Assembly: GCA_040384265.1 (NCBI GenBank)
Contig: JAZKJM010000002.1
Location: forward strand, 121,574 to 162,659
Length of the DNA stretch: 41,086 nucleotides
Direction: 5' to 3'
DNA from: Pseudomonadota bacterium
Lineage (GTDB): Bacteria; Pseudomonadota; Alphaproteobacteria; Rickettsiales; UBA3002
The notes beneath the pieces were generated by a model. The model had not been told where the DNA came from and ran no database searches. It was given only the letters and a program-made list of their open reading frames with translations. Positions 309 through 39,009 of the stretch are shown here, in pieces. The translations under genes were made by a program, and so were the position numbers. Within the stretch, counting starts at the first letter, position 1. Each line of letters opens with the position of its first letter.

Positions 309-353
309 CCGTCACACAATCTTCACACACCGGGCCCACCCATGCGCTAGAAT
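309..353 (+). promoter_or_regulatory. PhoB-like direct-repeat promoter (site A)
   Basis: Two heptamers, CCGTCAC (309-315) and TCTTCAC (320-326), are separated by 4 bp. A -10-like TAGAAT lies at 348-353, 21 bp after the second repeat. The ATG of the next gene is at 360, six bases past the -10, so the transcript may be leaderless. The layout matches five other sites in this window. Binding by a PhoB/OmpR-type regulator is inferred. Confidence 0.6.
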
Positions 354-359
354 TGCCTT

Positions 360-746
360 ATGAAACTTGATCCTGCAGAAACATCCCAAGCGTGGTGGTT
401 AGGCGCTTTAAGAGGCGGCTCTTTCGGCATGCTTGTTGGTGTCGCCATTGGCCTGTCCAGCGCCCTGCTGCTCGCGAGCGTGCTGCCCGCCATCTCCGTA
501 TGGCCATTGCTCTCCGCCGGAGGCCTATTCGCCGGTGCCATCGGCACGTATCAGGGTGGCCGCAACGCCGTTGCCGCCTACCATCAGCAAAAACACAACC
601 AGCGGGATGAGGCCAATATCAACGCGCTCGACGCCCGCACCCAGGTGCTGGAGCAAGCCGCCGGCATCACCCCACGCAAAAACTTCGCAGATGCCGAAAT
701 AACCCGCCGCGAGCAAACTGCCGAAAACGGCCACACCATCCACTAA
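360..746 (+). CDS. Small two-helix membrane protein, function unknown
   Basis: A 128-residue protein that I do not recognise. It has a short N-terminal segment, two glycine-rich hydrophobic stretches (about residues 22-44 and 47-67) that would form a membrane hairpin, and a charged, glutamine-rich C-terminal tail likely to be helical. There is no signal peptide or lipobox. No Shine-Dalgarno precedes the ATG; instead TAGAAT lies six bases upstream, which suggests a leaderless transcript from the direct-repeat promoter at 309-353. The gene ends at 746, directly abutting the convergent methyltransferase stop at 747. Its architecture and promoter resemble the proteins at 8891, 10061 and 36892, so I infer one co-regulated set. 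The membrane prediction is good; the function is unknown. Confidence 0.75.
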   Translation: MKLDPAETSQAWWLGALRGGSFGMLVGVAIGLSSALLLASVLPAISVWPLLSAGGLFAGAIGTYQGGRNAVAAYHQQKHNQRDEANINALDARTQVLEQAAGITPRKNFADAEITRREQTAENGHTIH

Positions 747-2114: not shown

Positions 2115-4345
2115 TAGGCAGCCATAAAACCGGGCAGCCACGTCTCGTTCACCTCGCGCAGATGCGCCACGGGGATGCGCATCACATCCTCGACCAGTAG
2201 CAGATCGGGCACCGTCACGCCCAGATCCGTGAATGGCACCGACGCCTGATTGAGCCGCACCATCACCTCGTTTTTCGCATTGGGCGGCACCGCGATCAAA
2301 TAGCGTGCCTGATCCTCGCCGAACGCATAGGCATGCAGCGGCAGACCCGCCGGGAACTGCACCTGCGCGCCAATGTCGCGGCCCATGCACATCTCGGCCA
2401 GCGCCACCAGCAACCCGCCATCAGAAAGGTCATGGCAGGCCGAAACCAACCGTCCATCCTCGATCAGGCTGCGCACCATCATCCCGTGGCGTAGCTCGAT
2501 TGCCAGATCCACCGGCGGCGGCGCACCCTCTTCACTTTGCAGCAGCTCGCGCAGATACAGCGATGCGCCCAGATGCCCCTTGGTGTCGCCGATCAGGAAA
2601 ATACTATGCCCCACTTCCGTAAAGCTGCTGGTCACCCGTGCATTGGCGTCGTTCAGCAGCCCCACCCCGCCAACCGCCGGGGTTGGCTGCACGGACTGGC
2701 CGTGCGTTTCATTGTAAAGCGACACATTACCCGAAACGACCGGATAAGAAAGCACCCGGCAGGCTTCCGCCATGCCCTGAATCGCGCCCACAATCTGGCC
2801 CATAATCTCGGGCTTTTGCGGATTGCCAAAGTTCAAACAATCCGTGATCGCCAGCGGCGTCGCGCCGACCGCAATCAGGTTGCGCCAGCTTTCCGCCACC
2901 GCCTGCTTGCCGCCTTCGGCAGGGTCCGCCTGCACATAGCGCGGCGTGCAATCGGTCGTGATCGCAAGCGCCTTCGCCGTGCCGTGAATGCGCACCACCG
3001 CCGCATCCCCACCGGGGCGGCCGATCGTGTCGTTCATCACCATATGGTCGTATTGCTGCCAGATCCAACGCTTGCTCGCAATGTCGGGCGAGGCCATCAG
3101 CGTCGCCAGCGACTGGCCAATATCAAGCGCCCGCACCTGCGACGGCTCGATCAGCGGGCGCTTGGGCGTCAGCGTATACGGCCGGTCATACACCGGTGCC
3201 GCATCCGACAACGGCGCCACCGGAATGTCGCACACCACCGCGCCCTCATGGGTCAGCACCATCCGCCCGGTATCGGTCAACGTGCCGATAGTCGCGCAGG
3301 CAAGGCCCCATTTTTTCATGATGCCATAGGCCACATCTTCGCTGCCGGGCTTCACCACCATCAGCATGCGTTCCTGCGATTCCGAAAGCATCACCTCATA
3401 AGGCGTCATCCCCGCTTCGCGCATCGGGATCGACTCAATCGCCAGCTCAATCCCAAGCCCGCCTTTGCTTGCCATCTCAAGGCTGGAGCAGGTTAAACCC
3501 GCCGCGCCCATATCCTGAATGGAGATAATAATATCCGTCGCCATCAGCTCCAGCGATGCTTCGATCAGCAGCTTCTCGGTGAACGGGTCGCCGACCTGCA
3601 CGGTCGGGCGTTTTTCTTCCGTCGTCTCATCGAACTCGGCGCTCGCCATCGTTGCGCCGTGGATGCCGTCGCGCCCGGTTTTCGCACCGAAATAAATCAC
3701 CGAATTACCAACGCCCGATGCCTTGGAGTAAAAAATCTTATCCGCATCCGCAAGGCCGACCGCCATCGCGTTGACCAGCGGGTTGCCGTTATAGGAGCTA
3801 TGGAAAATCGTTTCCCCACCCACCGTCGGCACACCAACACAGTTGCCGTAATGCGAAATCCCGGCGACCACGCCATTCACAATGTGGCGCGTTTTCGGGT
3901 TGCTCGGCTCGCCAAAACGCAGGCTGTTCATCAGCGCAATCGGCCGCGCGCCCATGGTAAACACATCGCGCAGAATGCCGCCGACACCGGTCGCCGCGCC
4001 CTGGAATGGCTCGATGAAACTCGGGTGGTTATGGCTTTCCATTTTGAAAATCACCGCCTGCCCATCGCCAATATCGACCACGCCGGCATTCTCGCCCGGC
4101 CCACAAATCACCTGCGGCCCCGTCACCGGGAAACTGCGCAGCCATTTGCGCGTGGTTTTGTAGGAGCAATGCTCGCTCCACATCACCGAGAAAATCCCCA
4201 GTTCCACCAGGTTCGGCGTACGGCCGATAATATCGACCACCCGCTCATATTCATCATGCGTCAGGCCATGGGCCTCGATGATTTCTTTGGTGATGACATC
4301 AGCGGTGGTTTCGGCAGTTTTGGCGGCGGCGGTCATAGGGCTCAC
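2114..4345 (-). CDS. purL: Phosphoribosylformylglycinamidine synthase subunit PurL
   Basis: A 743-residue protein, the usual size for the stand-alone PurL of the PurL-PurQ-PurS type. It makes FGAM from FGAR, ATP and ammonia in de novo purine synthesis in the cytoplasm. Visible hallmarks include [16 protein letters not shown] near the N terminus, the [12 protein letters not shown] segment, [17 protein letters not shown], the [13 protein letters not shown] segment, and the C-terminal [10 protein letters not shown] motif. The start may be the first Met (4345) or the Met three codons in (4336). It ends coupled to the methyltransferase. PurQ and PurS are not in this window, so they are either upstream in another locus or unlinked. 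Confidence 0.97.
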
Positions 4346-4403
4346 ATACGCTAGGGTTGCCCATCCCTGATAGCAAGTTGGGCCAGTGCTGCAAAGCCCG
4401 TTC

Positions 4404-4433
4404 TTGCCACCGGCGCGGATTTTCCCCTATACT
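4404..4433 (+). promoter_or_regulatory. Probable sigma-70-type promoter for the gene at 4457
   Basis: TTGCCA at 4404-4409 and TATACT at 4428-4433 are separated by 18 bp, ending 23 bp before the ATG. It lies in the divergent gap between purL and the gene at 4457. Assigned by motif match only. Confidence 0.45.
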
Positions 4434-4456
4434 GGCCCCTCACAAACGGGGTTAGC

Positions 4457-4867
4457 ATGCGTTGGCTATGGCGTTCACTGGCATTCTGGGCCGTCAGCCT
4501 GCCGCTTTTCTATCTTTTCGGCCTGCCGATGCTGCTCGACCAGCTCTCCGCCAAAGCCACCCGCGAAGGCTACGGCCAGTGCATCACCCAAATGCGCGCG
4601 GAAGGCCTGCTCGGCGGCGCCAACTCGCCCTTTCCGCCCGAGCGGATCGACCAATACTGCCATTGCGTCAGCGATGGCTTGATCTTCACCAAACCCGACC
4701 TATTTGACATGGTGCAGAAACGGCCGCCTGCCGCGCTGACTGCTCTTGCCAGCGCCAAGGCCGCCACCTGCAACGCCAGCCTCGAACAATCCGTGGGCAT
4801 GGGGGCCGCCACTGTCGGCGCACCCATAACACCCCCGGCCACTGACGATAAAGTAACCCACTTCTAA
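4457..4867 (+). CDS. Membrane-anchored small protein with conserved-looking cysteines, unknown
   Basis: A 136-residue protein that I do not recognise. A single N-terminal hydrophobic segment (about residues 4-27) would anchor it or act as an uncleaved signal. The rest is probably outside the cytoplasm: Cys42, a CHC pair at Cys68/Cys70 in the sequence QYCHCVSDGL, and Cys105, an arrangement that could give two disulfides. The last 25 residues are low-complexity Gly/Ala/Pro. The helical Cys-containing core resembles small periplasmic proteins of unknown function seen in many proteobacteria. It sits 13 bp ahead of grxD on the same strand and may be co-transcribed with it. Confidence 0.75.
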   Translation: MRWLWRSLAFWAVSLPLFYLFGLPMLLDQLSAKATREGYGQCITQMRAEGLLGGANSPFPPERIDQYCHCVSDGLIFTKPDLFDMVQKRPPAALTALASAKAATCNASLEQSVGMGAATVGAPITPPATDDKVTHF

Positions 4868-4880
4868 CGAAAGCCCCGCC

Positions 4881-5231
4881 ATGACCGAGAACCCCGCCTT
4901 CGCCCGCATTGAAGCCGACATCCAGGCCAACGACATCGTGCTCTATATGAAGGGTAGCAAAAAACTCCCGCAATGCGGTTTCTCCGCCACCGTCGCCGCC
5001 ATTTTCGAGCGGCTGGGCGTGAGCGAGTATAAAGACATCAACGTGCTGGCCGACGCCGAAATCCGCGAAGGCGTCAAAGCCTACGCCCAGTGGCCCACCA
5101 TCCCGCAGCTCTACATCAAGGGCGAATTCATCGGCGGCTGCGACATCGTGCGCGACATGTACCAATCCGGCGAACTGCAAGCCCTGCTGAAGGAAAACAA
5201 CATCGCGTTCAAAGACGCCGACGCGGCCTAA
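4881..5231 (+). CDS. grxD: Monothiol glutaredoxin, Grx4 family
   Basis: A 116-residue protein. CGFS at residues 32-35, preceded by KGSKKLPQ, is the active-site signature of monothiol Grx4 proteins, which bind and transfer [2Fe-2S] clusters with BolA partners. Later motifs fit glutathione and cluster binding: WPTIPQLYIKGEFIGGCDI. The bolA gene at the left end of the window is the likely partner. A gene for an exported protein follows 14 bp downstream on the same strand. Confidence 0.96.
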   Translation: MTENPAFARIEADIQANDIVLYMKGSKKLPQCGFSATVAAIFERLGVSEYKDINVLADAEIREGVKAYAQWPTIPQLYIKGEFIGGCDIVRDMYQSGELQALLKENNIAFKDADAA

Positions 5232-5245
5232 TCGAGAGAGAAAAC

Positions 5246-5749
5246 ATGAAGTACAATAAACGTGCTGTAACTGGCATATCTGGAGCGTTGCTCGCCGTTA
5301 CTTCTGTCATAGTGGCTAGTGGCAACCATGCGCTCGCTGCGGGCTCAACCGGCGCAGGCAGTCCCAATAGCGTTCACGTTACGGTTGCCAACAATACGAG
5401 TCCAATTTCGGACACTGTTGGCGTCAAAACAACCACTGCCGACGGCACGGCCATCTATATATTAGTTCCTTCGATCGCTACCAAAGAATCGGCAGCTATG
5501 ACCATAAAAGCAGGTTCGCAGGCCGGCGTCGACGTGACACAGCTGATTGGCAAAGCTGTCTTTGAGTTCGCCAATATTCCCCGTGGGGTTAGCGCTACCG
5601 TGGTAGTGGAAGCGACGTCGAAAGTGAAAGAAGTATTGGAGTGTAACGCCGTTCAAAAGAAATGTCTTGCTTATCCATTTGAGCGCATAAACCCCACGCA
5701 GGTTTCTTTCGCAGTAAAAGCGGATCGGTTTTACGCACTTCTACCCTAA
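5246..5749 (+). CDS. Exported protein of unknown function
   Basis: A 167-residue protein that I do not recognise. The N terminus is a good Sec signal peptide: positively charged MKYNKR, a hydrophobic core, and an ALA-AG cleavage site near residue 32. The mature part is rich in Thr, Val and Ala and looks beta-stranded, with two cysteines (133 and 140) that could pair. A purine-rich GAGAGAGAAAAC leader precedes the ATG at 5246; the frame open from 5090 overlaps grxD and is not native. Its base composition is more AT-rich than grxD just upstream. It appears to share the grxD transcript, but no functional link is evident. Confidence 0.75.
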   Translation: MKYNKRAVTGISGALLAVTSVIVASGNHALAAGSTGAGSPNSVHVTVANNTSPISDTVGVKTTTADGTAIYILVPSIATKESAAMTIKAGSQAGVDVTQLIGKAVFEFANIPRGVSATVVVEATSKVKEVLECNAVQKKCLAYPFERINPTQVSFAVKADRFYALLP

Positions 5750-5772
5750 AAACCGGATCTTTTCTGGCAGTC

Positions 5773-6279
5773 CTACTCCCGCCCGGAACCCTTGCCCTTA
5801 TCCCGCCCCGGCTGCACATGCGGTGCATTGTTCGCCAGCCCGCCCAGCTCGTTTTTGTTCGCCGGCTGAATATCGTTCATACCGCGCGTGGCCATGTCCC
5901 GACCGATGCCGCGTACGGCGCGCTCCAGCATCGGCATCGCAAGAAACGCCTCGCGCATTTTACGGATGGTTTCTTCCGACATCATCCAGCTTAGCCATTG
6001 GCGGAAATTGCTCCGCTGGCGCTCCACCTTCTGGCGTTGCTCGGCGGCAAGGAACTTGTCCAGTTCCTTCTCTTTTTCCTGCGCCCGCGCCTGCAGCATT
6101 GCGCGCAGCTTCTTGATAATCGCCACCCGCACCACTTCCGTCTCGCCCTCAAGCAATTCGGCCAGCATCAGGTCGCAATCGGGCTGCTCCCCGGCAATCG
6201 CTTCAATAAGCGCCTCAATATCGGCCATCACGTCGCGCAGCAGGGCATCAGTATCGGCGGGTGGGGGGAGTTTTTTCAT
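5773..6279 (-). CDS. Coiled-coil cytoplasmic protein, unknown
   Basis: A 168-residue hydrophilic protein that I do not recognise. Residues about 10-105 are highly charged and helical (for example ARAQEKEKELDKFLAAEQRQKVERQR), consistent with a coiled coil. A WLSWMMSEETIRKMREAF segment follows, then a low-complexity charged tail. There is no signal peptide or membrane helix. It is convergent with the exported protein at 5246, with 23 bp between the stops, and divergent from the metallopeptidase at 6381. Reality is supported by the GC-rich codon pattern and the clean boundaries. Confidence 0.7.
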   Translation of the reverse strand: MKKLPPPADTDALLRDVMADIEALIEAIAGEQPDCDLMLAELLEGETEVVRVAIIKKLRAMLQARAQEKEKELDKFLAAEQRQKVERQRSNFRQWLSWMMSEETIRKMREAFLAMPMLERAVRGIGRDMATRGMNDIQPANKNELGGLANNAPHVQPGRDKGKGSGRE

Positions 6280-6380
6280 AGCAAAATTATAGCATAATTA
6301 ATGGGTTATGCACTAAAAACCATTAAACGTTTCTTAAGAAGTCTGAGTTAAACTAAGAGACACTAAAACTGGAGCGGATC

Positions 6381-7448
6381 ATGCCATTAGAAATCAAAAA
6401 TAAAGCGGACTATGAACGCGTCAAAAATCAGCAAGAAGCTGCTTTGAACACGCTGCATGCCAAGGGGCAAGCAGAACGGTGGCCAAGCAACAAGCTCTTA
6501 GACGCACTGGCTACCACGGCACTTCCGTACATGTTGGCGCTCAATGATCCCGCCAACCCAGTTGCCCGCCAAGAAACCAATAAAATAGCTATTGCATCAC
6601 TGAGTCAGCAAGGGTCTTTTACAGCATTGCCCCAAGGTCAGCATAAAGGCATCCAGGAAATTGTCACGCAACATACCAATGCGCTCAATGAAAAATACGG
6701 GAAAAATTATCCAGTCCCTACGGTTCTCACAGGCAACTTTAAAATTTCTCTAGCTGGCTACATGATGACCGGCGATGTGCTTGTTATCGATAATGAAACT
6801 TTAACAACGAAGGCGAATGATAAAAGCTTTTGGAAAGGTCTTCTTGGCCATGAGCTTGGACATCGCTATCTCAGAGGCGAAGACAGAGTTCTTCCTTTGA
6901 TAAAATCGAATTTTGCACGCGCACTCAATCTGCCATTGGATGCGCAGACATTATCGGAAGTGAGGAAAACAGAGGCAATAGCAGATTTCACAGCCGCACA
7001 AATAAGCAAGCCTTCGGATGTAAAACAGTTGATTACGGAAGTATCACGCCTCGATCAGACAGCCATGGGGCAGTTTCTTTTAGAAACCTTCAAAAACGCT
7101 AAGATAGTATTACCCGATATCTCAGAAGCGCGGACACTCTACGATACATTGCCGCCCCAGTCCAAGAAGCTTTTAAATCATAACTTTTCTGCTCTTCCCA
7201 AACGTGAACAAGATGCGCTGACCAATCGAGCATTAGAAGCGGAGCAAGATCAGGAAAAGTATGCCACTCATCCAAGCCTCCTAAATAGGTCTAAGCTTCA
7301 AGAAACACTATCCGCAAATCCCCAAATACTCGCATGCAAAGATGTAAGGCTCGACGGCTCCGCGAATATAATAAGTGCGCAAGACTGTGGCCCCAACAAG
7401 GTGACGTCGCCAACACCGACCAAACGGACTGAAATGATACGCAAATAA
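6381..7448 (+). CDS. HExxH zinc metallopeptidase (M48-like gluzincin)
   Basis: A 355-residue protein. Residues 157-161 read HELGH, the zinc-binding HExxH helix, preceded by FWKGLLG. About 37 residues later comes TEAIADFTAA (Glu198, Asp202), matching the third-ligand ExxxD helix of M48-type gluzincins. Unlike HtpX or Ste24 it has no membrane segments, and unlike BepA or LoiP it has no signal peptide or lipobox, so it should be cytoplasmic or exported by another route. The gene is clearly more AT-rich than its neighbours, which suggests acquisition. The start is supported by GGAG seven bases before the ATG. A bidirectional terminator follows directly. The peptidase fold is likely; the substrate is unknown. 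Confidence 0.75.
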   Translation: MPLEIKNKADYERVKNQQEAALNTLHAKGQAERWPSNKLLDALATTALPYMLALNDPANPVARQETNKIAIASLSQQGSFTALPQGQHKGIQEIVTQHTNALNEKYGKNYPVPTVLTGNFKISLAGYMMTGDVLVIDNETLTTKANDKSFWKGLLGHELGHRYLRGEDRVLPLIKSNFARALNLPLDAQTLSEVRKTEAIADFTAAQISKPSDVKQLITEVSRLDQTAMGQFLLETFKNAKIVLPDISEARTLYDTLPPQSKKLLNHNFSALPKREQDALTNRALEAEQDQEKYATHPSLLNRSKLQETLSANPQILACKDVRLDGSANIISAQDCGPNKVTSPTPTKRTEMIRK

Positions 7449-8323: not shown

Positions 8324-8869
8324 CTACAGCCCGGCTGCGGTTTCCATGGTGGCGGCTGGCGCGGCGGCACGCTCAGCATGGCTGCCCGCGACCCCATTCG
8401 CCTTGTCCGCCGCGATGCGCGCATCCACATCCACCTGCGACGCTGAGTTCATATAGGACTGCTGCGGCGCAAACCCGGCTGCCTGCGCGGCCATCGCCTG
8501 CCCCTCAAATTGCTGCTGAAGCGCGACACCCTTACGGTTCGACAACCAGCTGCCAGCAGCGACAGCCGCAGCGCCTACAGTCGCAATCGGGGCAAGTCGG
8601 GGGAATTTGGTGTAGAAACCAGCCGTCCCATTCAACGCCCATTTTACCGGCTTCATGGCCAAGGCAATCGGTTGCTCAACCACCCAGGCGCCCGCACGTG
8701 CCGATGCACGAAACGGCGCCGTCCATACGCTGGGGGCTTCCGCGACGATTGGGGCGACAGCGCTGCCATTCTTCCAATTCTTGGCAAAATTCGTGAAGGA
8801 GTCAAAGAACGCATTGCCCACACGTTGTGCGGCACCGATGATCTGTTGTCCTTCTCTGGCGATACCCAT
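8324..8869 (-). CDS. Alanine-rich protein with one membrane segment, unknown
   Basis: A 181-residue protein that I do not recognise. The N-terminal 90 residues are amphipathic and aromatic-rich without a signal peptide. A single hydrophobic Ala/Gly stretch at about residues 91-109 could span the membrane. The tail (QQQFEGQAMAAQAA...) is Ala/Gln-rich. It starts 21 bp after the stop of the gene at 8891 and so is most likely the second gene of that operon, under the direct-repeat promoter at 9474-9519. A strong terminator follows. It has no similarity I can name. Confidence 0.7.
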   Translation of the reverse strand: MGIAREGQQIIGAAQRVGNAFFDSFTNFAKNWKNGSAVAPIVAEAPSVWTAPFRASARAGAWVVEQPIALAMKPVKWALNGTAGFYTKFPRLAPIATVGAAAVAAGSWLSNRKGVALQQQFEGQAMAAQAAGFAPQQSYMNSASQVDVDARIAADKANGVAGSHAERAAAPAATMETAAGL

Positions 8870-8890
8870 GGTGCTTCCCCTGTATGCTAC

Positions 8891-9436
8891 TTATGCCCGT
8901 TGCAACTGCTGGCCATCGACCGTGCCCAGGTTCTGCAACGCATCCGCCTGAATGCGCGGCGAAGCTTGATTCATCGTCGAGCCCTGCGCCGGGAAGTTAT
9001 AGCGGCTATCGTTCGCCGCCTTCGCCATGACATTCGCCTGATAGGCGCCCATCTGGATATCCATCATCTTCGCCGCGCCACGCTCCTGCGAAACGCGCTC
9101 GGAAGCCTGTTGTGCGCCCTTGCCAGCACCGAAGGCAGCAGCAATCGTTCCGCTGAAAGCCCCCGCAAGCGCACCAACACCCGCACCAAGCACCGTGCCA
9201 ACCGCACCCAGGAATACCGTCATCCCGCCGGTGCTGCCACCTGCAAGACCAAGTGCCGTGACACCTGCGCCCAACCAGCCCGTACCAATCAGCAAGCCAA
9301 GCACTGCAAACCCGCCAACGCACCACAGCATCGTTTTTGCGCCGGATTTCAGCGCCCCACCAAATGCACCAGCAGCAACCGCACCGCCCGCACTCAGCGT
9401 GCTATGGTCAACTGGGTTTACATATTCGTTTTGCAT
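8891..9436 (-). CDS. Glycine-zipper membrane hairpin protein, unknown
   Basis: A 181-residue protein that I do not recognise. Residues about 16-104 are extremely rich in Gly and Ala, with two long hydrophobic stretches (about 35-65 and 70-103) showing GxxxG spacing typical of tightly packed membrane helices. The N terminus is short and polar. The C-terminal 75 residues are helical and polar (KGAQQASERVSQERG, then MMDIQMGAYQANVMAKAAND). There is no cleavable signal. AAGGGA lies eight bases before the ATG. It is first in a two-gene operon with the gene at 8324 and follows a direct-repeat promoter. It may be a membrane scaffold or pore-like protein, but nothing shows which. Confidence 0.75.
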   Translation of the reverse strand: MQNEYVNPVDHSTLSAGGAVAAGAFGGALKSGAKTMLWCVGGFAVLGLLIGTGWLGAGVTALGLAGGSTGGMTVFLGAVGTVLGAGVGALAGAFSGTIAAAFGAGKGAQQASERVSQERGAAKMMDIQMGAYQANVMAKAANDSRYNFPAQGSTMNQASPRIQADALQNLGTVDGQQLQRA

Positions 9437-9473
9437 AACCTAAATCCCTTATATGGGTATGAATCCAGTCTGC

Positions 9474-9519
9474 AGATTAACACAGCCCTTCAGCCCGGTG
9501 TGTGAAGCTTTTGTGACAA
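9474..9519 (-). promoter_or_regulatory. PhoB-like direct-repeat promoter (site B)
   Basis: On the minus strand TTGTCAC (9519-9513), AAAA, GCTTCAC (9508-9502), then 22 bp, then TAATCT (9479-9474). It drives the gene at 8891. The block from TTGTCAC through CACACACCGGGC is nearly the same as site A. Confidence 0.65.
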
Positions 9520-9539
9520 TCCATTTGCCCAGCAAATGC

Positions 9540-10061
9540 CTAGCTTTTAGCAAGGGGAGCGGGCGCTTTGGGTGGGGTTGCCGGCGCGGCCACTGCCACC
9601 GTATCCGTCTTGAGGTTCTGGGCAAGGACCCCAATCGCCACCGCGCTTGCCGCCGCGATCACCGCCCCGCCACCAAGCATGGTGCCCCAGCCTGCGGAAT
9701 CCGTGCCTTTGCTGGTTGCCGCGTCGATCATCCCGCCCATGCCGTCTTTCAGCGCGGCCAGCCCAAACCCTGCCACCGCCGTGGTTTTAAACACGCCGGG
9801 AAGGCCGTTTTCCTTCAGGTCCGCCGCCGCCTTTTGCACCAGCTTTTCGCCACCAATCGCATGCAGCACCGCCCGATATAAATCCGGCACCAGCAACGGC
9901 ACGGCACTGAACGCCGCCGTCAGCCACGCGCCCGTCCACACGCTGCCTGCCGCGCCCTTGGCCAACCCGCCGAGGCTGCCGACAATGCCACTCAAAAACC
10001 CGCCGCCGCCCTTGATCGCCGTGTCCGCCGCATCCACCACCTGTCTTGGATCAACTGCCAT
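9540..10061 (-). CDS. Glycine-rich multi-segment membrane protein, unknown
   Basis: A 173-residue protein that I do not recognise. Three hydrophobic stretches are visible: about residues 41-58 (containing AAFSAVPLLVPDLY), 88-106 and 126-148. The Gly-rich N terminus reads KGGGGFLSGIVGSLGGLAKGAAG, and the tail is Pro/Ala-rich (APATPPKAPAPLAKS). There is no signal peptide. Its ATG is coupled to the stop of the upstream gene (TGATG at 10061), so it is translated together with the protein at 10061-10636. Both are probably transcribed from the direct-repeat promoter at 10654-10699. Confidence 0.72.
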   Translation of the reverse strand: MAVDPRQVVDAADTAIKGGGGFLSGIVGSLGGLAKGAAGSVWTGAWLTAAFSAVPLLVPDLYRAVLHAIGGEKLVQKAAADLKENGLPGVFKTTAVAGFGLAALKDGMGGMIDAATSKGTDSAGWGTMLGGGAVIAAASAVAIGVLAQNLKTDTVAVAAPATPPKAPAPLAKS

Positions 10062-10636
10062 CAGAACCCCCTGCCCGCATTGTTATGCGAATGCGCCGTG
10101 CGATCCTGCCAATACGTATCGTGACGAATATCGTTCTCGCGCTGCAGGATCTGCTCCTGCACATAGTTGCTATGCAGCTGGTTTTCGCGATGATAGGCGC
10201 GGTAATCCACCGTCCGTTTCGGCGCGTTTTTCTGGAGCCGATCACGCTCGATCAGGTCATCCGCATATTTCTCGCCGCGCCGCTGGCGGTTCACTTCCTT
10301 CATGCCGCCGCTCACCAGCCCCGTCACGCCGCCAATCACCGCACCTGCCAGGAACCCAACCGCCGCGCAGACCGCAAACGCCGCCAGCCCCGGCGGTGTC
10401 GCGATTGCCGCAATAATGCCAAGGCCCGCACCGCCCCACAAGCCGCGCCGCCCCCATGTCGCCAGCCCGTTAAGCCCATGCGAAACAGTGCCGCCAATGA
10501 ATTTGCTGATATACCGCGCCGGGCGCAGCGGGTCACGCCCCGCCTTGATTTCGGAAAGCGATTTATTCGCTTCCTCGGCCGCGCTTGCGGGCGGCGGCGA
10601 TGGGGGCGGTTTTGCAGATGTGACGGGTGTGGCCAT
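10061..10636 (-). CDS. Glycine-zipper membrane hairpin protein with charged tail, unknown
   Basis: A 191-residue protein that I do not recognise. It has a Pro-rich N terminus (residues 9-18), a basic amphipathic region, then a long Gly/Ala-rich hydrophobic hairpin at about residues 66-109 (GLGIIAAIATPPGLAAF, AGAVIGGVTGLVSGG). About 80 charged residues follow with many Arg, Asp, Gln, His and Tyr (RAYHRENQLHSNYVQEQIL), probably helical. The design resembles the protein at 360: short head, hairpin, then a His/Gln-rich polar tail. It leads the operon with the gene at 9540 (TGATG coupling) under direct-repeat promoter C. Confidence 0.75.
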   Translation of the reverse strand: MATPVTSAKPPPSPPPASAAEEANKSLSEIKAGRDPLRPARYISKFIGGTVSHGLNGLATWGRRGLWGGAGLGIIAAIATPPGLAAFAVCAAVGFLAGAVIGGVTGLVSGGMKEVNRQRRGEKYADDLIERDRLQKNAPKRTVDYRAYHRENQLHSNYVQEQILQRENDIRHDTYWQDRTAHSHNNAGRGF

Positions 10637-10653
10637 AGTTTTTCCTACCCTGC

Positions 10654-10699
10654 ACTATAGCCCAAAGCGCCCCCGCGCTTCGTGAAGCTTTTGTGACAA
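10654..10699 (-). promoter_or_regulatory. PhoB-like direct-repeat promoter (site C)
   Basis: On the minus strand TTGTCAC (10699-10693), AAAA, GCTTCAC (10688-10682), 22 bp, then TATAGT (10659-10654). The 18-bp repeat block is identical to site B. It lies upstream of the gene pair 10061/9540. Confidence 0.7.
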
Positions 10700-10720
10700 T
10701 TCCAAGAAAAACGTGAGTGC

Positions 10721-10990
10721 CTAGGAGAGCCCCATCTCGGACAGCTGCTTATCGCAGCGCCGCACGACCAGCGTGCACAGCCCAACAATCATCGCCACCA
10801 CCAGCGCCGGATAGCCAACCATAATCAGCGCCCCGGGCTCAGGCATTCCCGTGCTGGAGCGCAGGCACAGCATCATCAGCCAGGTCAGCAACCCAACCAG
10901 CGCATAGCCCGCAAACAGCTGAAAAAATTTGAAAATCTTGCGTTGGAACTGCAAGGTTCCAACGGTCATTTCCATGAGTGCGTTATGCAT
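10721..10990 (-). CDS. Small two-helix membrane protein, unknown
   Basis: An 89-residue protein that I do not recognise. A short polar N terminus with several Met codons precedes two membrane segments, about residues 24-44 (FAGYALVGLLTWLMML) and 56-76 (IMVGYPALVVAMIVGLC). The C terminus is short and charged with a Cys pair region (CTLVVRRCDK). The first Met (10990) has AGGAC six bases upstream; Met at 10975 is an alternative. It continues the minus-strand cluster of small membrane proteins but lacks the direct-repeat element in its own upstream region, so its control may differ. Confidence 0.65.
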   Translation of the reverse strand: MHNALMEMTVGTLQFQRKIFKFFQLFAGYALVGLLTWLMMLCLRSSTGMPEPGALIMVGYPALVVAMIVGLCTLVVRRCDKQLSEMGLS

Positions 10991-15569: not shown

Positions 15570-15616
15570 CTGTCATCAAACTGTCATTTGAAGCAGCCCA
15601 CACATTCCTCTAGCAT
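15570..15616 (+). promoter_or_regulatory. PhoB box promoter (site D)
   Basis: CTGTCAT (15570-15576), CAAA, CTGTCAT (15581-15587) is a textbook PhoB box with two identical heptamers. TAGCAT (15611-15616) follows after 23 bp as the -10. It precedes the gene at 15644, which has AAGGAA seven bases before its ATG. Confidence 0.75.
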
Positions 15617-15643: not shown

Positions 15644-16159
15644 ATGACAGAGAATCCCATCCGCGCCATCCGTGCCGCCCATGAAGCGCGGCTCGCAGCG
15701 AATAAGGCCGCGCGCGAGGGTGATGGCCGGGAAGGCCCGCAATACCAGGCGTTGAAAAAACATTTCCCCCATATCCGCCATGATCCAGCATTCCTGAAAG
15801 CGCTGCTACCGCTGCTGACCGACATCGAAAACGAAAATCCGATGTGGAAATGCAGGACAACATGGGAAGCAGGCTACACCAAAGACGAAGCCAACGCTAA
15901 TGCCGCCGCAGCACAGCTGGCAGAACGCCTGCACGCCTATACCACCTTGCATAAAGAGACGGTGCCTGCGGACTACAACGCCGCACTGGCACTGCTGTCC
16001 AGCCACCTGAAGATGGCGAAAAAAGCCAACGCCGACTACAAGGGGCTTGCTGTAAACGTCCTAAAGAGACCATCCGAGTGGCAGAAGGATCCGGATTGCT
16101 GGACAAAATGCGTCACGGCACTCCGGGAAAAAGAGGCATCCTCCCTCACACCGGGCTAA
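15644..16159 (+). CDS. Helical cytoplasmic protein, unknown, under a PhoB-like box
   Basis: A 171-residue soluble, Ala/Lys/Glu-rich protein that I do not recognise. It appears all-helical: RAIRAAHEARLAANKAARE at the N terminus, HDPAFLKALLPLLTDIEN in the middle, and two later Cys in DCWTKCVTAL. There is no signal peptide or membrane segment. It is the only soluble member of the set preceded by the direct-repeat promoter element. It ends 2 bp before the convergent gltX stop. If site D is a true PhoB box, it should respond to phosphate limitation. Confidence 0.72.
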   Translation: MTENPIRAIRAAHEARLAANKAAREGDGREGPQYQALKKHFPHIRHDPAFLKALLPLLTDIENENPMWKCRTTWEAGYTKDEANANAAAAQLAERLHAYTTLHKETVPADYNAALALLSSHLKMAKKANADYKGLAVNVLKRPSEWQKDPDCWTKCVTALREKEASSLTPG

Positions 16160-36839: not shown

Positions 36840-36885
36840 ACTTCACACAACTGTCATAATCCCGCCTCGCCCCCTATGTTATAGT
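36840..36885 (+). promoter_or_regulatory. PhoB-like direct-repeat promoter (site E)
   Basis: ACTTCAC (36840-36846), ACAA, CTGTCAT (36851-36857), then 22 bp, then TATAGT (36880-36885). The ATG at 36892 is six bases past the -10, predicting a leaderless transcript as at site A. Here the CTTCAC-type heptamer comes first and the CTGTCAT-type second. Confidence 0.65.
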
Positions 36886-36891
36886 GTGAGC

Positions 36892-37428
36892 ATGAATGAA
36901 GCCACGCCATCCACCGAACCCGCCGAGCGCCCCTCCGGCCCGCGCGCCTTTTTTGGCGGCTTCGGCTCCGGCATGCTGAGCGGTGCGCTGATGATGGGCG
37001 TCGTCTTCACGCTCGGTGCCATCGCGACCCTCTACCCGCCGCTGGCCGCCATCGCCCCGCACGTCCTCAGTTGGAGCTTTGTCGGCACCGCCGCTTTCAT
37101 GTCGGTCGCCACCGGCCTGTTTGGCGGGCTGATGAACATGAAACGCACCTATGCCAGCACTGCCGCTGCCGCACATACGGATGTGATTCCCGTTACCATT
37201 CCCATGCAAAGCCAGGACCTCGCCCTTGCGCCTGCCACCGTTCTGCCCGATGCCGTGGAGCAGGAAGCACCCACCAAAAACTGGGCCGCCGAAACCGGCC
37301 GCAATGCCAACAGCCAAACCCGCATCCAGCAGATCCTCGCCAATGGCTCGCTGAGCGATACGGATCGCGCCCACGCGATCCTAGCCGCCCGTGAAGCGGC
37401 CCCCACCAGCACGGGCCTTGGCGCTTAA
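36892..37428 (+). CDS. Glycine-rich two-helix membrane protein, unknown
   Basis: A 178-residue protein that I do not recognise. A short Pro/Glu-rich head is followed by a Gly-rich lead (RAFFGGFGSGMLSGALMMG) into two membrane helices (about 28-50 and 62-81). The 95-residue tail is polar and helical (NSQTRIQQILANGSLSDTDRAHAILAAREAA). There is no Shine-Dalgarno, and the likely -10 lies six bases upstream. The architecture matches the proteins at 360, 8891 and 10061. It is divergent from nth. Confidence 0.75.
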   Translation: MNEATPSTEPAERPSGPRAFFGGFGSGMLSGALMMGVVFTLGAIATLYPPLAAIAPHVLSWSFVGTAAFMSVATGLFGGLMNMKRTYASTAAAAHTDVIPVTIPMQSQDLALAPATVLPDAVEQEAPTKNWAAETGRNANSQTRIQQILANGSLSDTDRAHAILAAREAAPTSTGLGA

Positions 37429-38041: not shown

Positions 38042-38068
38042 AAAAAATAATGATGCTCATTATTTTTT
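38042..38068. terminator. AT-rich hairpin at the end of the membrane-protein gene
   Basis: Perfect 12-bp arms AAAAAATAATGA / TCATTATTTTTT with a 3-nt loop, ending exactly at the TGA (38070-38068) of the minus-strand gene. It has flanking A/T runs usable in either direction. Confidence 0.6.
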
Positions 38069-38940
38069 CAAATGACCATAAGTTGTGGCTGGGGCACATT
38101 TGTAATCGGCCCGGCATGGGTCTTGGCACCAAGGATCGTGCTATCTGGCCCTGCATCACGCACTGCTGGCAGCCCCTCGCCGACCGCATCCGCCGTATCG
38201 GAAAAAAGCGGGTGGTGCGATGGTGGGAGATGCGCCTTCTTTTCCTCGTGGCGCCGCGCAAAGAAATGCCCGCCGACATAGAGCAACGTTGCCGCCGCCG
38301 CCGTTGCAAACACATCCAGCGCGCCCAGCTTACCAAGCTTGAATGCCCGGCTTTCTTGGTTTTTTGCCACATCCCATGTCGGTTTCCCGACCAGTTTGCA
38401 GGCCCGTTCCGCGAATTCATTGGTGAAGGTCTGGAAGGTCTTTGGAAACGCCAGGCTCGCACTGAACAAGGTGCTGAACACCGCCCCCCACGCCAGCATG
38501 CGGCCTTCAATCAGGCTCATCCAGGTCTGTTTCGGCGTCGCCTCGATCGATTCAGGGCTCGCCTGATCGCCGAGCTTTTCATCAAGGGCGGTAACGATCG
38601 GCACTTTATAATGTTCCGCGATGCCAACCGGGATCAGCATAGCGTTCCCGCCTTGCATCAGGGTCGTCGTCATCACTGCTTCTTCGGCGAATTTTTTGGC
38701 GGTCGACGGGCTGAGGAAACGCCCGGCGTGCTTTTCCACCCAGCCGACAACGCGCTCATATTGCCCGGCGCGCTTGCCGTCCTTGAGCACAAACGCCATG
38801 GGGATGGTCACAATGAACGTGCCAACCCCGGCAATGCCACCATAGACGCCCCAATCGAACAGCTTTCCGCCTTTCGATTTGCGTATTTTGGCTTCCACCC
38901 TTGGCTCGGGCGGGTTGATGGCGGGCTCGGCTATCGGCAC
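38068..38940 (-). CDS. Multi-helix membrane protein, unknown
   Basis: A 290-residue protein (start GTG) that I do not recognise. Predicted hydrophobic segments lie at about 33-53 (GIAGVGTFIVTIPMAFVL), 92-108, 146-165 (WGAVFSTLFSASLAFP) and 208-228 (DVFATAAAATLLYVGG); a cytoplasmic-looking His/Lys tail follows. I chose the GTG at 38940 because AAGGAG stands eight bases upstream and just downstream of the -10 of promoter F. The longer ATG frame at 39009 would start inside the regulatory repeat. The frame to 39084 is not supported. It belongs to the group with the direct-repeat promoter. Confidence 0.72.
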   Translation of the reverse strand: MPIAEPAINPPEPRVEAKIRKSKGGKLFDWGVYGGIAGVGTFIVTIPMAFVLKDGKRAGQYERVVGWVEKHAGRFLSPSTAKKFAEEAVMTTTLMQGGNAMLIPVGIAEHYKVPIVTALDEKLGDQASPESIEATPKQTWMSLIEGRMLAWGAVFSTLFSASLAFPKTFQTFTNEFAERACKLVGKPTWDVAKNQESRAFKLGKLGALDVFATAAAATLLYVGGHFFARRHEEKKAHLPPSHHPLFSDTADAVGEGLPAVRDAGPDSTILGAKTHAGPITNVPQPQLMVI

Positions 38941-38963: not shown

Positions 38964-39009
38964 ATTTTAGGGGATTTTGCACCGCCCATGTGTGAAGGTT
39001 TGATGACAT
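38964..39009 (-). promoter_or_regulatory. PhoB-like direct-repeat promoter (site F)
   Basis: On the minus strand ATGTCAT (39009-39003), CAAA, CCTTCAC (38998-38992), 22 bp, then TAAAAT (38969-38964). The ribosome site AAGGAG (38954-38949) and GTG (38940) follow with a short leader. The repeat overlaps the frame of the alternative upstream start at 39009. Confidence 0.7.

What the first reader, a model, noticed from the sequence alone, without database searches (positions are those of the whole stretch)
8324..10990. Cluster of glycine-zipper membrane hairpin proteins in coupled pairs
Five consecutive minus-strand genes encode small proteins without signal peptides, four of them with Gly/Ala-dense hydrophobic segments and polar helical or Pro-rich tails. 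Two promoters with an identical 18-bp repeat block (TTGTCAC-AAAA-GCTTCAC) drive two two-gene units, one coupled through TGATG. Single-gene relatives in architecture lie at 360 and 36892. GxxxG-rich hairpins can drive membrane oligomerisation or curvature, so this could be a membrane-remodelling, pore-forming or storage-body system.
Basis: partly seen in the sequence, partly recalled or inferred. Interest (0 to 1): 0.7.

Follow-up and report, generated by a model that had tools for sequence, protein, structure and literature searches.

The report
Shared-promoter regulon with orphan membrane proteins
Four fast-evolving membrane-type proteins encoded in two neighbouring pairs belong to a large gene set that shares one conserved promoter box, probably read by the regulator PhoB, in a Rickettsiales-like bacterium whose type IV secretion pilus gene carries a related box, so the set is a candidate list of what that machine delivers.

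Summary
Genes A-B and C-D (8324-10636) are two operons behind identical 18-bp blocks. The block is two half-sites 11 bp apart; a -10 follows 21-23 nt downstream at 17 of 19 own-genome sites. At <=1 mismatch it occurs 19 times in the 2.0-Mb genome (reversed control 0) and in 27 of 37 genomes of the order sample, but at background level in 113 other Alphaproteobacteria. The cassette lies, whole or in part, beside rpsD in 7 of 8 family genomes examined, at 21-53% identity where rpsD is 83-88%. Box-gene proteins rarely match Pfam; about half have TM segments, unusually glycine-rich, and C-tails are polar (both replicated in other genomes). A PhoB ortholog tracks the box (25 of 27 genomes with it, 0 of 10 without). 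An rvh-like type IV secretion system carries a train of related half-sites before virB2 in the own genome and 3 of 14 relatives. Best reading: a PhoB-type regulon of candidate T4SS-associated effectors. Secretion is inferred; a C-terminal motif seen by eye was not replicated.

The parts
10061..10636 (-). Gene A, 191 aa: Pro-rich N-terminus, Gly-rich hydrophobic hairpin, polar helical tail; WQDR or WQDH near the C-terminus in four of the six sequences aligned
   Evidence: A-position proteins of G001, G003, G004, G005, G007; helical model, pLDDT 62.1
9540..10061 (-). Gene B, 173 aa, Gly-rich membrane protein, overlaps A through TGATG
   Evidence: B placed by position in G003, G005, G006; 21-30% identity to the window
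8891..9436 (-). Gene C, 181 aa, Gly-rich hydrophobic hairpin (11 GxxxG), tail like NKYNFPxQGSAMN...IQA in the genus
   Evidence: (7 relatives aligned)
8324..8869 (-). Gene D, 181 aa, weakly hydrophobic segment, tail PSYMNSASQxDVDARIAADxANGV shared with G001 and less closely with others
   Evidence: 6 relatives aligned
10682..10699 (-). Box 1 (TTGTCAC-AAAA-GCTTCAC) of operon A-B; -10 TATAGT at 10654-10659, gap 22 nt
9502..9519 (-). Box 2, identical, of operon C-D; -10 TAATCT at 9474-9479, gap 22 nt
310..326 (+). Box CGTCACACAATCTTCAC, -10 gap 21, of ORF 360-746
360..746 (+). Box gene, 128 aa, TM protein; ATG 6 nt after the -10 hexamer, so possibly leaderless
36841..36857 (+). Box with half-sites in the other order (CTTCAC-N5-TGTCAT), -10 TATAGT at gap 22, of ORF 36892-37428
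36892..37428 (+). Box gene, 178 aa, TM protein with polar tail
38992..39008 (-). Box TGTCATCAAACCTTCAC, -10 TAAAAT at gap 22, of the gene ending at 38068
38068..38940 (-). Box gene, about 290 aa, TM protein; start inferred as the GTG after GGAG, because the longer ORF starts lie upstream of the -10
   Evidence: start is inference
15571..15587 (+). Box TGTCATCAAACTGTCAT, -10 at gap 23, in front of ORF 15644-16159 (171 aa)

Best explanation
The cluster is part of a regulon. SHOWN BY SEQUENCE: one promoter class, two half-sites of the form [T/C][G/T]TCA[C/T] 11 bp apart centred near -43, with a -10 (often GCTAnnAT) 21-23 nt downstream, stands in front of many genes of this genome and of genomes of its order. 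The products rarely match a known family, mostly lack a Sec-like start, have glycine-rich TM segments in about half of the cases, and end in polar, poorly hydrophobic tails. INFERRED, LIKELY: the activator is the orphan PhoB, whose recognition helix is nearly identical to that of E. coli PhoB, which binds TGTCA. INFERRED, LESS CERTAIN: the regulon's job is delivery. PhoB or a close paralog also drives the virB2-virD4 island of the rvh-like type IV secretion system. A, B, C, D and other box-gene proteins are then made together with that machine as substrates or partners that pass into, or sit across, the membrane of a prey or host cell. In this view the glycine-zipper hairpins insert and oligomerise in the target membrane, and the two operon pairs supply partners in fixed ratio.
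For: Motif: 19 sites vs 0 reversed control at <=1 mismatch (own genome row); -10 at gap 20-23 in 17 of 19 own and 59 of 94 relatives' sites, other 4-nt bins 0-3 and 3-21. Order-specific: 27 of 37 genomes, 177 sites vs 2 controls; 113 alphaproteobacteria outside the order 21 hits in 15 genomes vs 16 controls. Regulator: PhoB equivalog TIGR02154 332 bits, cut-off 296; ortholog at >=54% identity in 25 of 27 motif genomes and 0 of 10 motif-less (p 1.9e-7 if genomes were independent); recognition helix RTVDVHVRRLRKAL against RTVDVHIRRLRKAL in 1gxp; PhoB site TGTCA(T/C) (PMC3264566, passages). Protein class: Gly in TM segments 0.155 vs 0.089 own and 0.181 vs 0.106 relatives; C-terminal small/polar 0.55 vs 0.44 and 0.55 vs 0.41; Pfam over cut-off in 2 of 28 box-gene proteins vs 7 of 7 neighbours. 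T4SS: Pfam for VirB2, B4, B6, B9, B10, B11, D4, one VirB10 only, trains of three half-sites in front of virB2 in G000, G003, G004, G010 and none of three in reversed sequence. Cassette kept beside rpsD but diverging fast.
Against: No protein was shown to be secreted. A C-terminal motif that I picked by eye was not replicated (3 of 27 vs 7 of 137 background in relatives, p=0.21), and a de novo search barely exceeded shuffles. The virB2 train has another layout (three or more repeats, TGTAAC halves) and was found in only 3 of the 14 relatives with a virB2-like ORF in the stretch examined; the C5 island (virB3-B4-B6) has no box in front. PhoB co-occurrence is confounded with genome reduction: motif-less genomes have few response regulators of any kind; G011 and G027 have boxes without a detected PhoB. 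Regulator L064 also shows 20 of 27 vs 0 of 10. pstS has no box. The lack of Sec-like starts was seen in the own genome (0 of 31 vs 31 of 177) but gave no contrast in relatives (2 of 47 vs 8 of 137). Only 8 of 19 own sites have a gene with a BLAST relative behind a box in another genome. Some members look like ordinary exports: an RTX-repeat protein (L037) and a lipoprotein-like one (L040, by eye).
Confidence: 0.45

Rival explanations
1. Resident membrane proteins: A-D stay in the producer's own inner membrane and remodel it, line a storage body or help the envelope under stress; the box marks a stress regulon, not a secretion regulon.
For: TM hairpins without Sec signals insert in the inner membrane by default (established knowledge); no specific secretion signal was found; PhoB is classically a phosphate-stress regulator (established knowledge).
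Against: The box stands before many unrelated orphan proteins, about half without a TM segment; very fast divergence is unusual for a resident structural machine (inference).
Confidence: 0.27
2. Regulon of another OmpR-family regulator (L064, Cus/Czc-like by eye, or the L069/L070 pair) with the same kind of targets; PhoB is a bystander.
For: L064 is encoded about 7 kb from the group of sites on C1 and occurs in 20 of 27 motif genomes and 0 of 10 others; the -10 gap of 22 nt differs from about 10 nt in E. coli phoA (recalled).
Against: An L064 ortholog was not found in G001 (95% complete, 17 sites) nor in G004, G007, G011, G016, G025 and G027; PhoB is present in 25 of 27 and has the right recognition helix. 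L069 and L070 were not tested across genomes.
Confidence: 0.25
3. Classical phosphate-starvation response in which these genes are lineage-specific late members.
For: PhoB equivalog and Pho-box-like half-sites; pstS and PhoU are encoded.
Against: No phosphate-acquisition gene recognised behind the <=1-mismatch sites (by eye; Pfam); pstS has no box; no histidine-kinase gene next to phoB in the 8-kb stretch (by eye).
Confidence: 0.15
4. Contact-dependent glycine-zipper bacteriocins of the Cdz type exported by a type I system.
For: Paired Gly-zipper proteins; an RTX protein is behind a box; the Cdz paper describes such two-protein killers in Caulobacter (PMC5380434, abstract and passages).
Against: Length 173-191 aa against 60-151; no type I genes seen in the cassette; no short leader ending in G[G/A/S] seen; no immunity gene recognised (by eye).
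Confidence: 0.07
5. Composition artefact: GC-rich ORFs that look like Gly/Ala membrane proteins.
For: High GC gives many spurious ORFs.
Against: Conserved order and boxes, ribosome-binding-like sites, pN below pS in all 36 pairs of A-D compared, composition contrast against neighbours replicated in relatives.
Confidence: 0.01

Closest known systems
PmrA and CpxR effector regulons of Legionella and Coxiella Dot/Icm
   Same: OmpR-family response regulators with conserved promoter elements drive many effector genes; such elements were used as a feature to predict effectors (PMC2701608, passages).
   Different: Other regulator (PhoB-like), other T4SS (vir/rvh type, not Dot/Icm), other class of bacteria; secretion not shown here.
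Rickettsiales vir homolog (rvh) T4SS and its candidate effectors in basal rickettsiae
   Same: Duplicate VirB4, several VirB6-like ORFs, single VirB10 in the own genome; basal families are said to carry rvh and purportedly kill congener microbes (PMC11077975, abstract and passages).
   Different: The passages I read describe no PhoB-type regulon and no glycine-zipper quartet.
Pho regulon of E. coli and Alphaproteobacteria
   Same: PhoB equivalog, nearly identical recognition helix, TGTCA-type half-sites 11 bp apart.
   Different: Second half-site mostly CTTCAC; -10 about 22 nt away; no phosphate uptake genes seen behind the box.
Cdz glycine-zipper bacteriocins (CdzC/CdzD)
   Same: Two-protein, Gly-zipper membrane-active proteins in an alphaproteobacterium (PMC5380434, abstract and passages).
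   Different: Size, export system and gene context.

Membership tests
Pho box / PhoB regulon | Two TGTCA-type half-sites, 11-bp period | tested here: met
   the second half is usually CTTCAC, so the match to the classical consensus is partial
Pho box / PhoB regulon | PhoB encoded, same recognition helix | tested here: met
Pho box / PhoB regulon | PhoB tracks the box across genomes | tested here: met
   25 of 27 vs 0 of 10; confounded by genome reduction
Pho box / PhoB regulon | Phosphate-acquisition genes among targets | tested here: not met
   pstS without box; none recognised among first genes of the <=1-mismatch sites
Pho box / PhoB regulon | PhoB binds the box | not testable with these tools
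   needs EMSA or ChIP
rvh T4SS (Rickettsiales) | VirB4 duplication, multicopy VirB6 | tested here: met
   two VirB4; one VirB6 in L030 by Pfam, three more ORFs behind virB4 in L273 read as VirB6 by position and by eye only; VirB4 of L273 over NF010473 cut-off
rvh T4SS (Rickettsiales) | VirB8 and VirB9 duplication, no VirB5 | not tested
   one VirB9 by Pfam, one VirB8 by eye; no genome-wide search for them
T4SS effector | Translocation dependent on the T4SS | not testable with these tools
   no experiment
T4SS effector | Shared C-terminal signal | tested here: inconclusive
   polar, poorly hydrophobic tails enriched and replicated; specific motif not replicated
T4SS effector | Co-regulated with the secretion machine | tested here: inconclusive
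   half-site trains at virB2 in own genome and 3 of 14 relatives; none at the C5 island
Cdz bacteriocin | 60-151 aa with a leader ending in G[G/A/S] | tested here: not met
   173-191 aa; no such leader by eye; features from PMC5380434, passages
Cdz bacteriocin | Type I secretion genes in the cluster | tested here: not met
   none among gene calls of the window and the relatives' cassette loci, by eye; rest of the genome not searched for type I genes

The most novel reading that the evidence does not exclude
In a basal Rickettsiales lineage PhoB has been rewired from phosphate uptake into the master switch of a contact weapon or host-interaction arsenal: it turns on the type IV pilus and coupling-protein island together with a large, fast-turning-over set of mostly signal-less proteins, among them the A-B-C-D glycine-zipper quartet, which inserts as paired hairpins in target membranes.
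Probability: 0.28. Interest if true: 0.82.

Novelty: new variant of a known kind. Interest (0 to 1): 0.6.

Why it matters
What the rvh secretion system of basal, reportedly extracellular Rickettsiales delivers bears on how host dependence began in this order; killing of congener microbes is only proposed (PMC11077975, abstract and passages). A promoter that can be read from sequence alone would give a list of candidates, as PmrA and CpxR elements helped to do for Legionella (PMC2701608, passages). It also makes specific predictions (PhoB binding, substrate binding to VirD4, membrane insertion) that can be tested with purified parts and laboratory strains. The four families A-D are orphans kept at one locus, so they are good first targets.

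Tried and rejected
A shared C-terminal motif ('RI.AD'-like), noticed by eye in the own genome (9 of 31 vs 8 of 177, last 40 aa), was tested on relatives' proteins without BLAST homology to the own set: 3 of 27 vs 7 of 137, p=0.21; rejected. De novo motif search on 30 tails only slightly exceeded the best of 12 shuffles at each of three widths, and the shuffles had fewer starts. The C-terminal net charge did not differ (p=0.57).

A two-T4SS model was dropped after only one VirB10 was found.

L064 as regulator was tested and ranks below PhoB. CenR was considered and dropped because its motif is TGA-N8-TGA (PMC9275681, passages).

The genome-contig scan with gene A found no relative; the one with PurL gave a quick tree (SH-aLRT only) in which the window groups with L114 (UBA6149), L170 (labelled Rickettsiales) and L117. 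Placement in Rickettsiales is inference from this and from the T4SS (VirB4 in 37 of 37 sampled genomes). An exact form of the box was not found in those 80 loci. A paper search for UBA6149 gave nothing.

Folds: single-sequence models only, low confidence; Foldseek on model A gave no match; model C was not searched.

Rows dropped: one search uses 31 own proteins chosen by hand. L037, L040, L044, L050, window 36892, the window 15644 ORF and some further sites were left out of that set, and a few of these remain in its background, as does L107:2527. L040 looks like a lipoprotein, so 'no Sec-like start' is not absolute. Relatives: 94 of 158 sites were in hand; of the 59 with a -10, 47 distinct complete proteins of 90 aa or more were used. 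In one search, three of ten genes drawn as background proved to be behind boxes and are counted as box genes. In one search only the first five sequences of each family entered the pairwise counts. In one search lines with negative coordinates are an indexing artefact of my script.
Full report
WHAT IS IN THE WINDOW. The five minus-strand ORFs are there. Genes A (10061-10636) and B (9540-10061) overlap through TGATG; C (8891-9436) and D (8324-8869) are 21 bp apart. The same 18-bp block precedes A and C (10682-10699 and 9502-9519). The 89-aa ORF 10721-10990 lacks the box and I saw no counterpart in relatives. None of the five is matched by Pfam or NCBIfam above cut-off, and PHROGs gives only weak matches (best E 0.0059).

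THE BLOCK IS A PROMOTER ELEMENT. TTGTCAC-AAAA-GCTTCAC is two half-sites 11 bp apart. In the own genome (G000, 2.0 Mb, 9 contigs) the 18-mer gives 19 sites at <=3 mismatches and 0 for the reversed pattern. The core TGTCACANAANCTTCAC gives 19 sites at <=1 mismatch against 0 control and 71 against 25 at <=3 mismatches, so the looser sites are only partly real. A hexamer TAnnnT lies 20-23 nt after the box at 17 of 19 own sites; every other 4-nt bin holds 0-3. In relatives it is 59 of 94 sites, other bins 3-21. The box is thus centred near -43 (inference). Four ATGs follow the -10 by only 6-7 nt (L034, L036, L040 and window 360), which suggests leaderless messages. In the window a generic double half-site occurs 7 times, 6 of them with the -10, and never in reversed sequence.

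IT IS A PROPERTY OF THE ORDER. At <=1 mismatch, 27 of 37 genomes of the relatives sample have sites: all 13 other members of the family (111 sites), 13 of 23 from other families (47 sites), plus the own 19; controls 2 in all (sums). In the class sample, the 113 genomes outside the order hold 21 hits, in 15 of them, against 16 controls, that is, background.

THE CASSETTE IS KEPT. rpsD was located in 12 relatives and its upstream side read. Whole or in part, the cassette lies there in 7 of the 8 family members examined, G001 to G007, and not in G008; nor in G016, G017 or G018 of other families, and L244 (G014) gave no gene call. The gene on the far side is the same rRNA/tRNA methyltransferase-like gene in G003, G005, G006 and G007, a glutamyl-tRNA synthetase-like gene in G001, and a contig end in G002 and G004. 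A box stands in front of C at <=1 mismatch in G001, G002, G003, G004, G005 and G007, and in front of A in G001, G003 and G007; G006 has one before A at 3 mismatches and none before C; G004 and G005 have none before A. G001 lacks B, and no D was seen in G006. Identity of A-D to the window is 21-53% while rpsD is 83-88% within the genus; pN is below pS in all 36 pairs of A-D compared, with synonymous sites near saturation, so I claim a conserved reading frame, not a dN/dS value.

WHAT THE REGULON ENCODES. Of 28 box-gene proteins scanned, 2 exceed a Pfam cut-off (an RTX-repeat protein and a peptidoglycan-binding one), against 7 of 7 neighbouring control genes. In 31 hand-chosen own proteins against 177 others: TM-bearing 17 of 31 vs 55 of 177; Gly in TM segments 0.155 vs 0.089 (p=7e-5); small/polar residues in the last 30 aa 0.55 vs 0.44 (p=1e-5); Sec-like start 0 of 31 vs 31 of 177. 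The TM and tail results repeat in 47 relatives' proteins (20 of them homologs of own ones) against 137: 26 of 47 vs 38 of 137; 0.181 vs 0.106 (p=5e-5); 0.55 vs 0.41 (p=5e-11). The Sec contrast does not repeat (2 of 47 vs 8 of 137) (homolog split). Genes at 8 of 19 own sites have a BLAST relative behind a box in another genome. So the glycine-rich hairpins of the finding are one flavour of a broader class.

THE REGULATOR. The genome has 9 OmpR-family DNA-binding regulators. One is a PhoB equivalog (TIGR02154, 332 bits, cut-off 296) whose recognition helix differs from that of E. coli PhoB in 1gxp by one I/V exchange; PhoB recognises TGTCA(T/C) (PMC3264566, passages). Its ortholog at >=54% identity is in 25 of 27 box-bearing genomes and 0 of 10 box-less ones; p=1.9e-7 if genomes were independent, which they are not, and box-less genomes are poor in regulators. 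The exceptions are G011 (80% complete, 7 sites) and G027 (97% complete, 1 site). The next candidate tested, L064, is in 20 of 27 and 0 of 10 but was not found in G001, which has 17 sites; the other seven regulators were not tested across genomes. No kinase gene was recognised beside phoB, and pstS has no box, so this is not a textbook Pho regulon.

THE SECRETION LINK. The own genome encodes VirB2 (two identical copies), VirB4, VirB6, VirB9, VirB10, VirB11 and VirD4 in one island on C3 (Pfam; VirB8 by eye), and VirB4 with VirB3-like and three VirB6-like ORFs on C5 (VirB3 and these VirB6 by eye). There is only one VirB10, so I read them as one rvh-like system in two islands; VirB4 is found in 37 of 37 genomes. 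rvh is described as a signature of Rickettsiales (PMC11077975, passages); with the PurL tree this makes Rickettsiales the likely order, by inference. In front of virB2 the own genome has TGTCAC-N5-CGTAAC-N5-TGTAAC followed by TGTGATACT. Similar trains of three stand at virB2 in G003, G004 and G010, not in the other 11 of 14 relatives with a virB2-like ORF in the stretch read; pairs stand there in G012, G029 and G033, but pairs also occur in reversed sequence (3 seen), trains of three do not. This is suggestive, not proof, of joint control.

HOW IT PROBABLY WORKS. A signal reaches PhoB; PhoB~P binds the box as a tandem dimer and recruits polymerase to the -10. The pilus/coupling island and the orphan proteins appear together. 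A-D, as glycine-zipper hairpins with polar tails, are either carried by the T4SS into a target membrane or form the producer's side of the contact. I favour delivery because of co-regulation, orphan status, fast divergence and tails, but no signal or translocation has been shown.

NOVELTY. Searches of the held library for PhoB and Pho box with effector and type IV secretion, for Rickettsiales with PhoB and regulon, and for Rickettsiales with type IV secretion, effector, response regulator and promoter motif gave 1, 9 (8 listed) and 0 papers, none of whose listings concerns such a regulon (listings only). The library holds open-licence papers only. The principle (response regulators driving T4SS effectors) is known from Legionella and Coxiella (PMC2701608, passages); the regulator, lineage and protein families here are different.

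Noticed in passing
L020 (G000:C1:353000-372999): Several box genes lie inside a phage-like or gene-transfer-agent-like head-tail cluster (HK97 portal and capsid models over cut-off; NlpC/P60), as if the cluster had been opened to take them in.
   Followed up: partly
L030 (G000:C3), about 4300-7000: Tandem duplication of about 1.18 kb holding two identical virB2 genes with identical half-site trains.
   Followed up: no
L021 4902-6779: RTX-type protein behind a perfect box; 19 HemolysinCabind stretches in the part scanned; its type I exporter was not sought.
   Followed up: no
L023:2993-4945 and relatives L084, L087, L195, L252, L254: Family found behind boxes at the most sites in the fetched loci, 6 in all; no Pfam match.
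   Followed up: no
L056, L053, L109: Box genes L053 and L056 share a PKQTWxSlxxGR-like stretch, and the second gene of L109 resembles L056 near its start (FxxGxYGG), by eye; possibly a paralogous family of larger membrane proteins.
   Followed up: no
L301 2741-4083 (G000:C5): A further two-gene operon behind a double half-site (TGTCATCAAACCGTAAC), its second product glycine-rich and hydrophobic.
   Followed up: no
L105 about 2631-2670: Four TGTCAC/CTTCAC-type half-sites in an 11-bp train directly before a -10-like TATAAA; the gene behind it was not worked out.
   Followed up: no
L101 8203-11912: Ppx-like and Ppk-like ORFs (by eye) lie close to virD4, of interest if PhoB is involved; no box printed there.
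   Followed up: no
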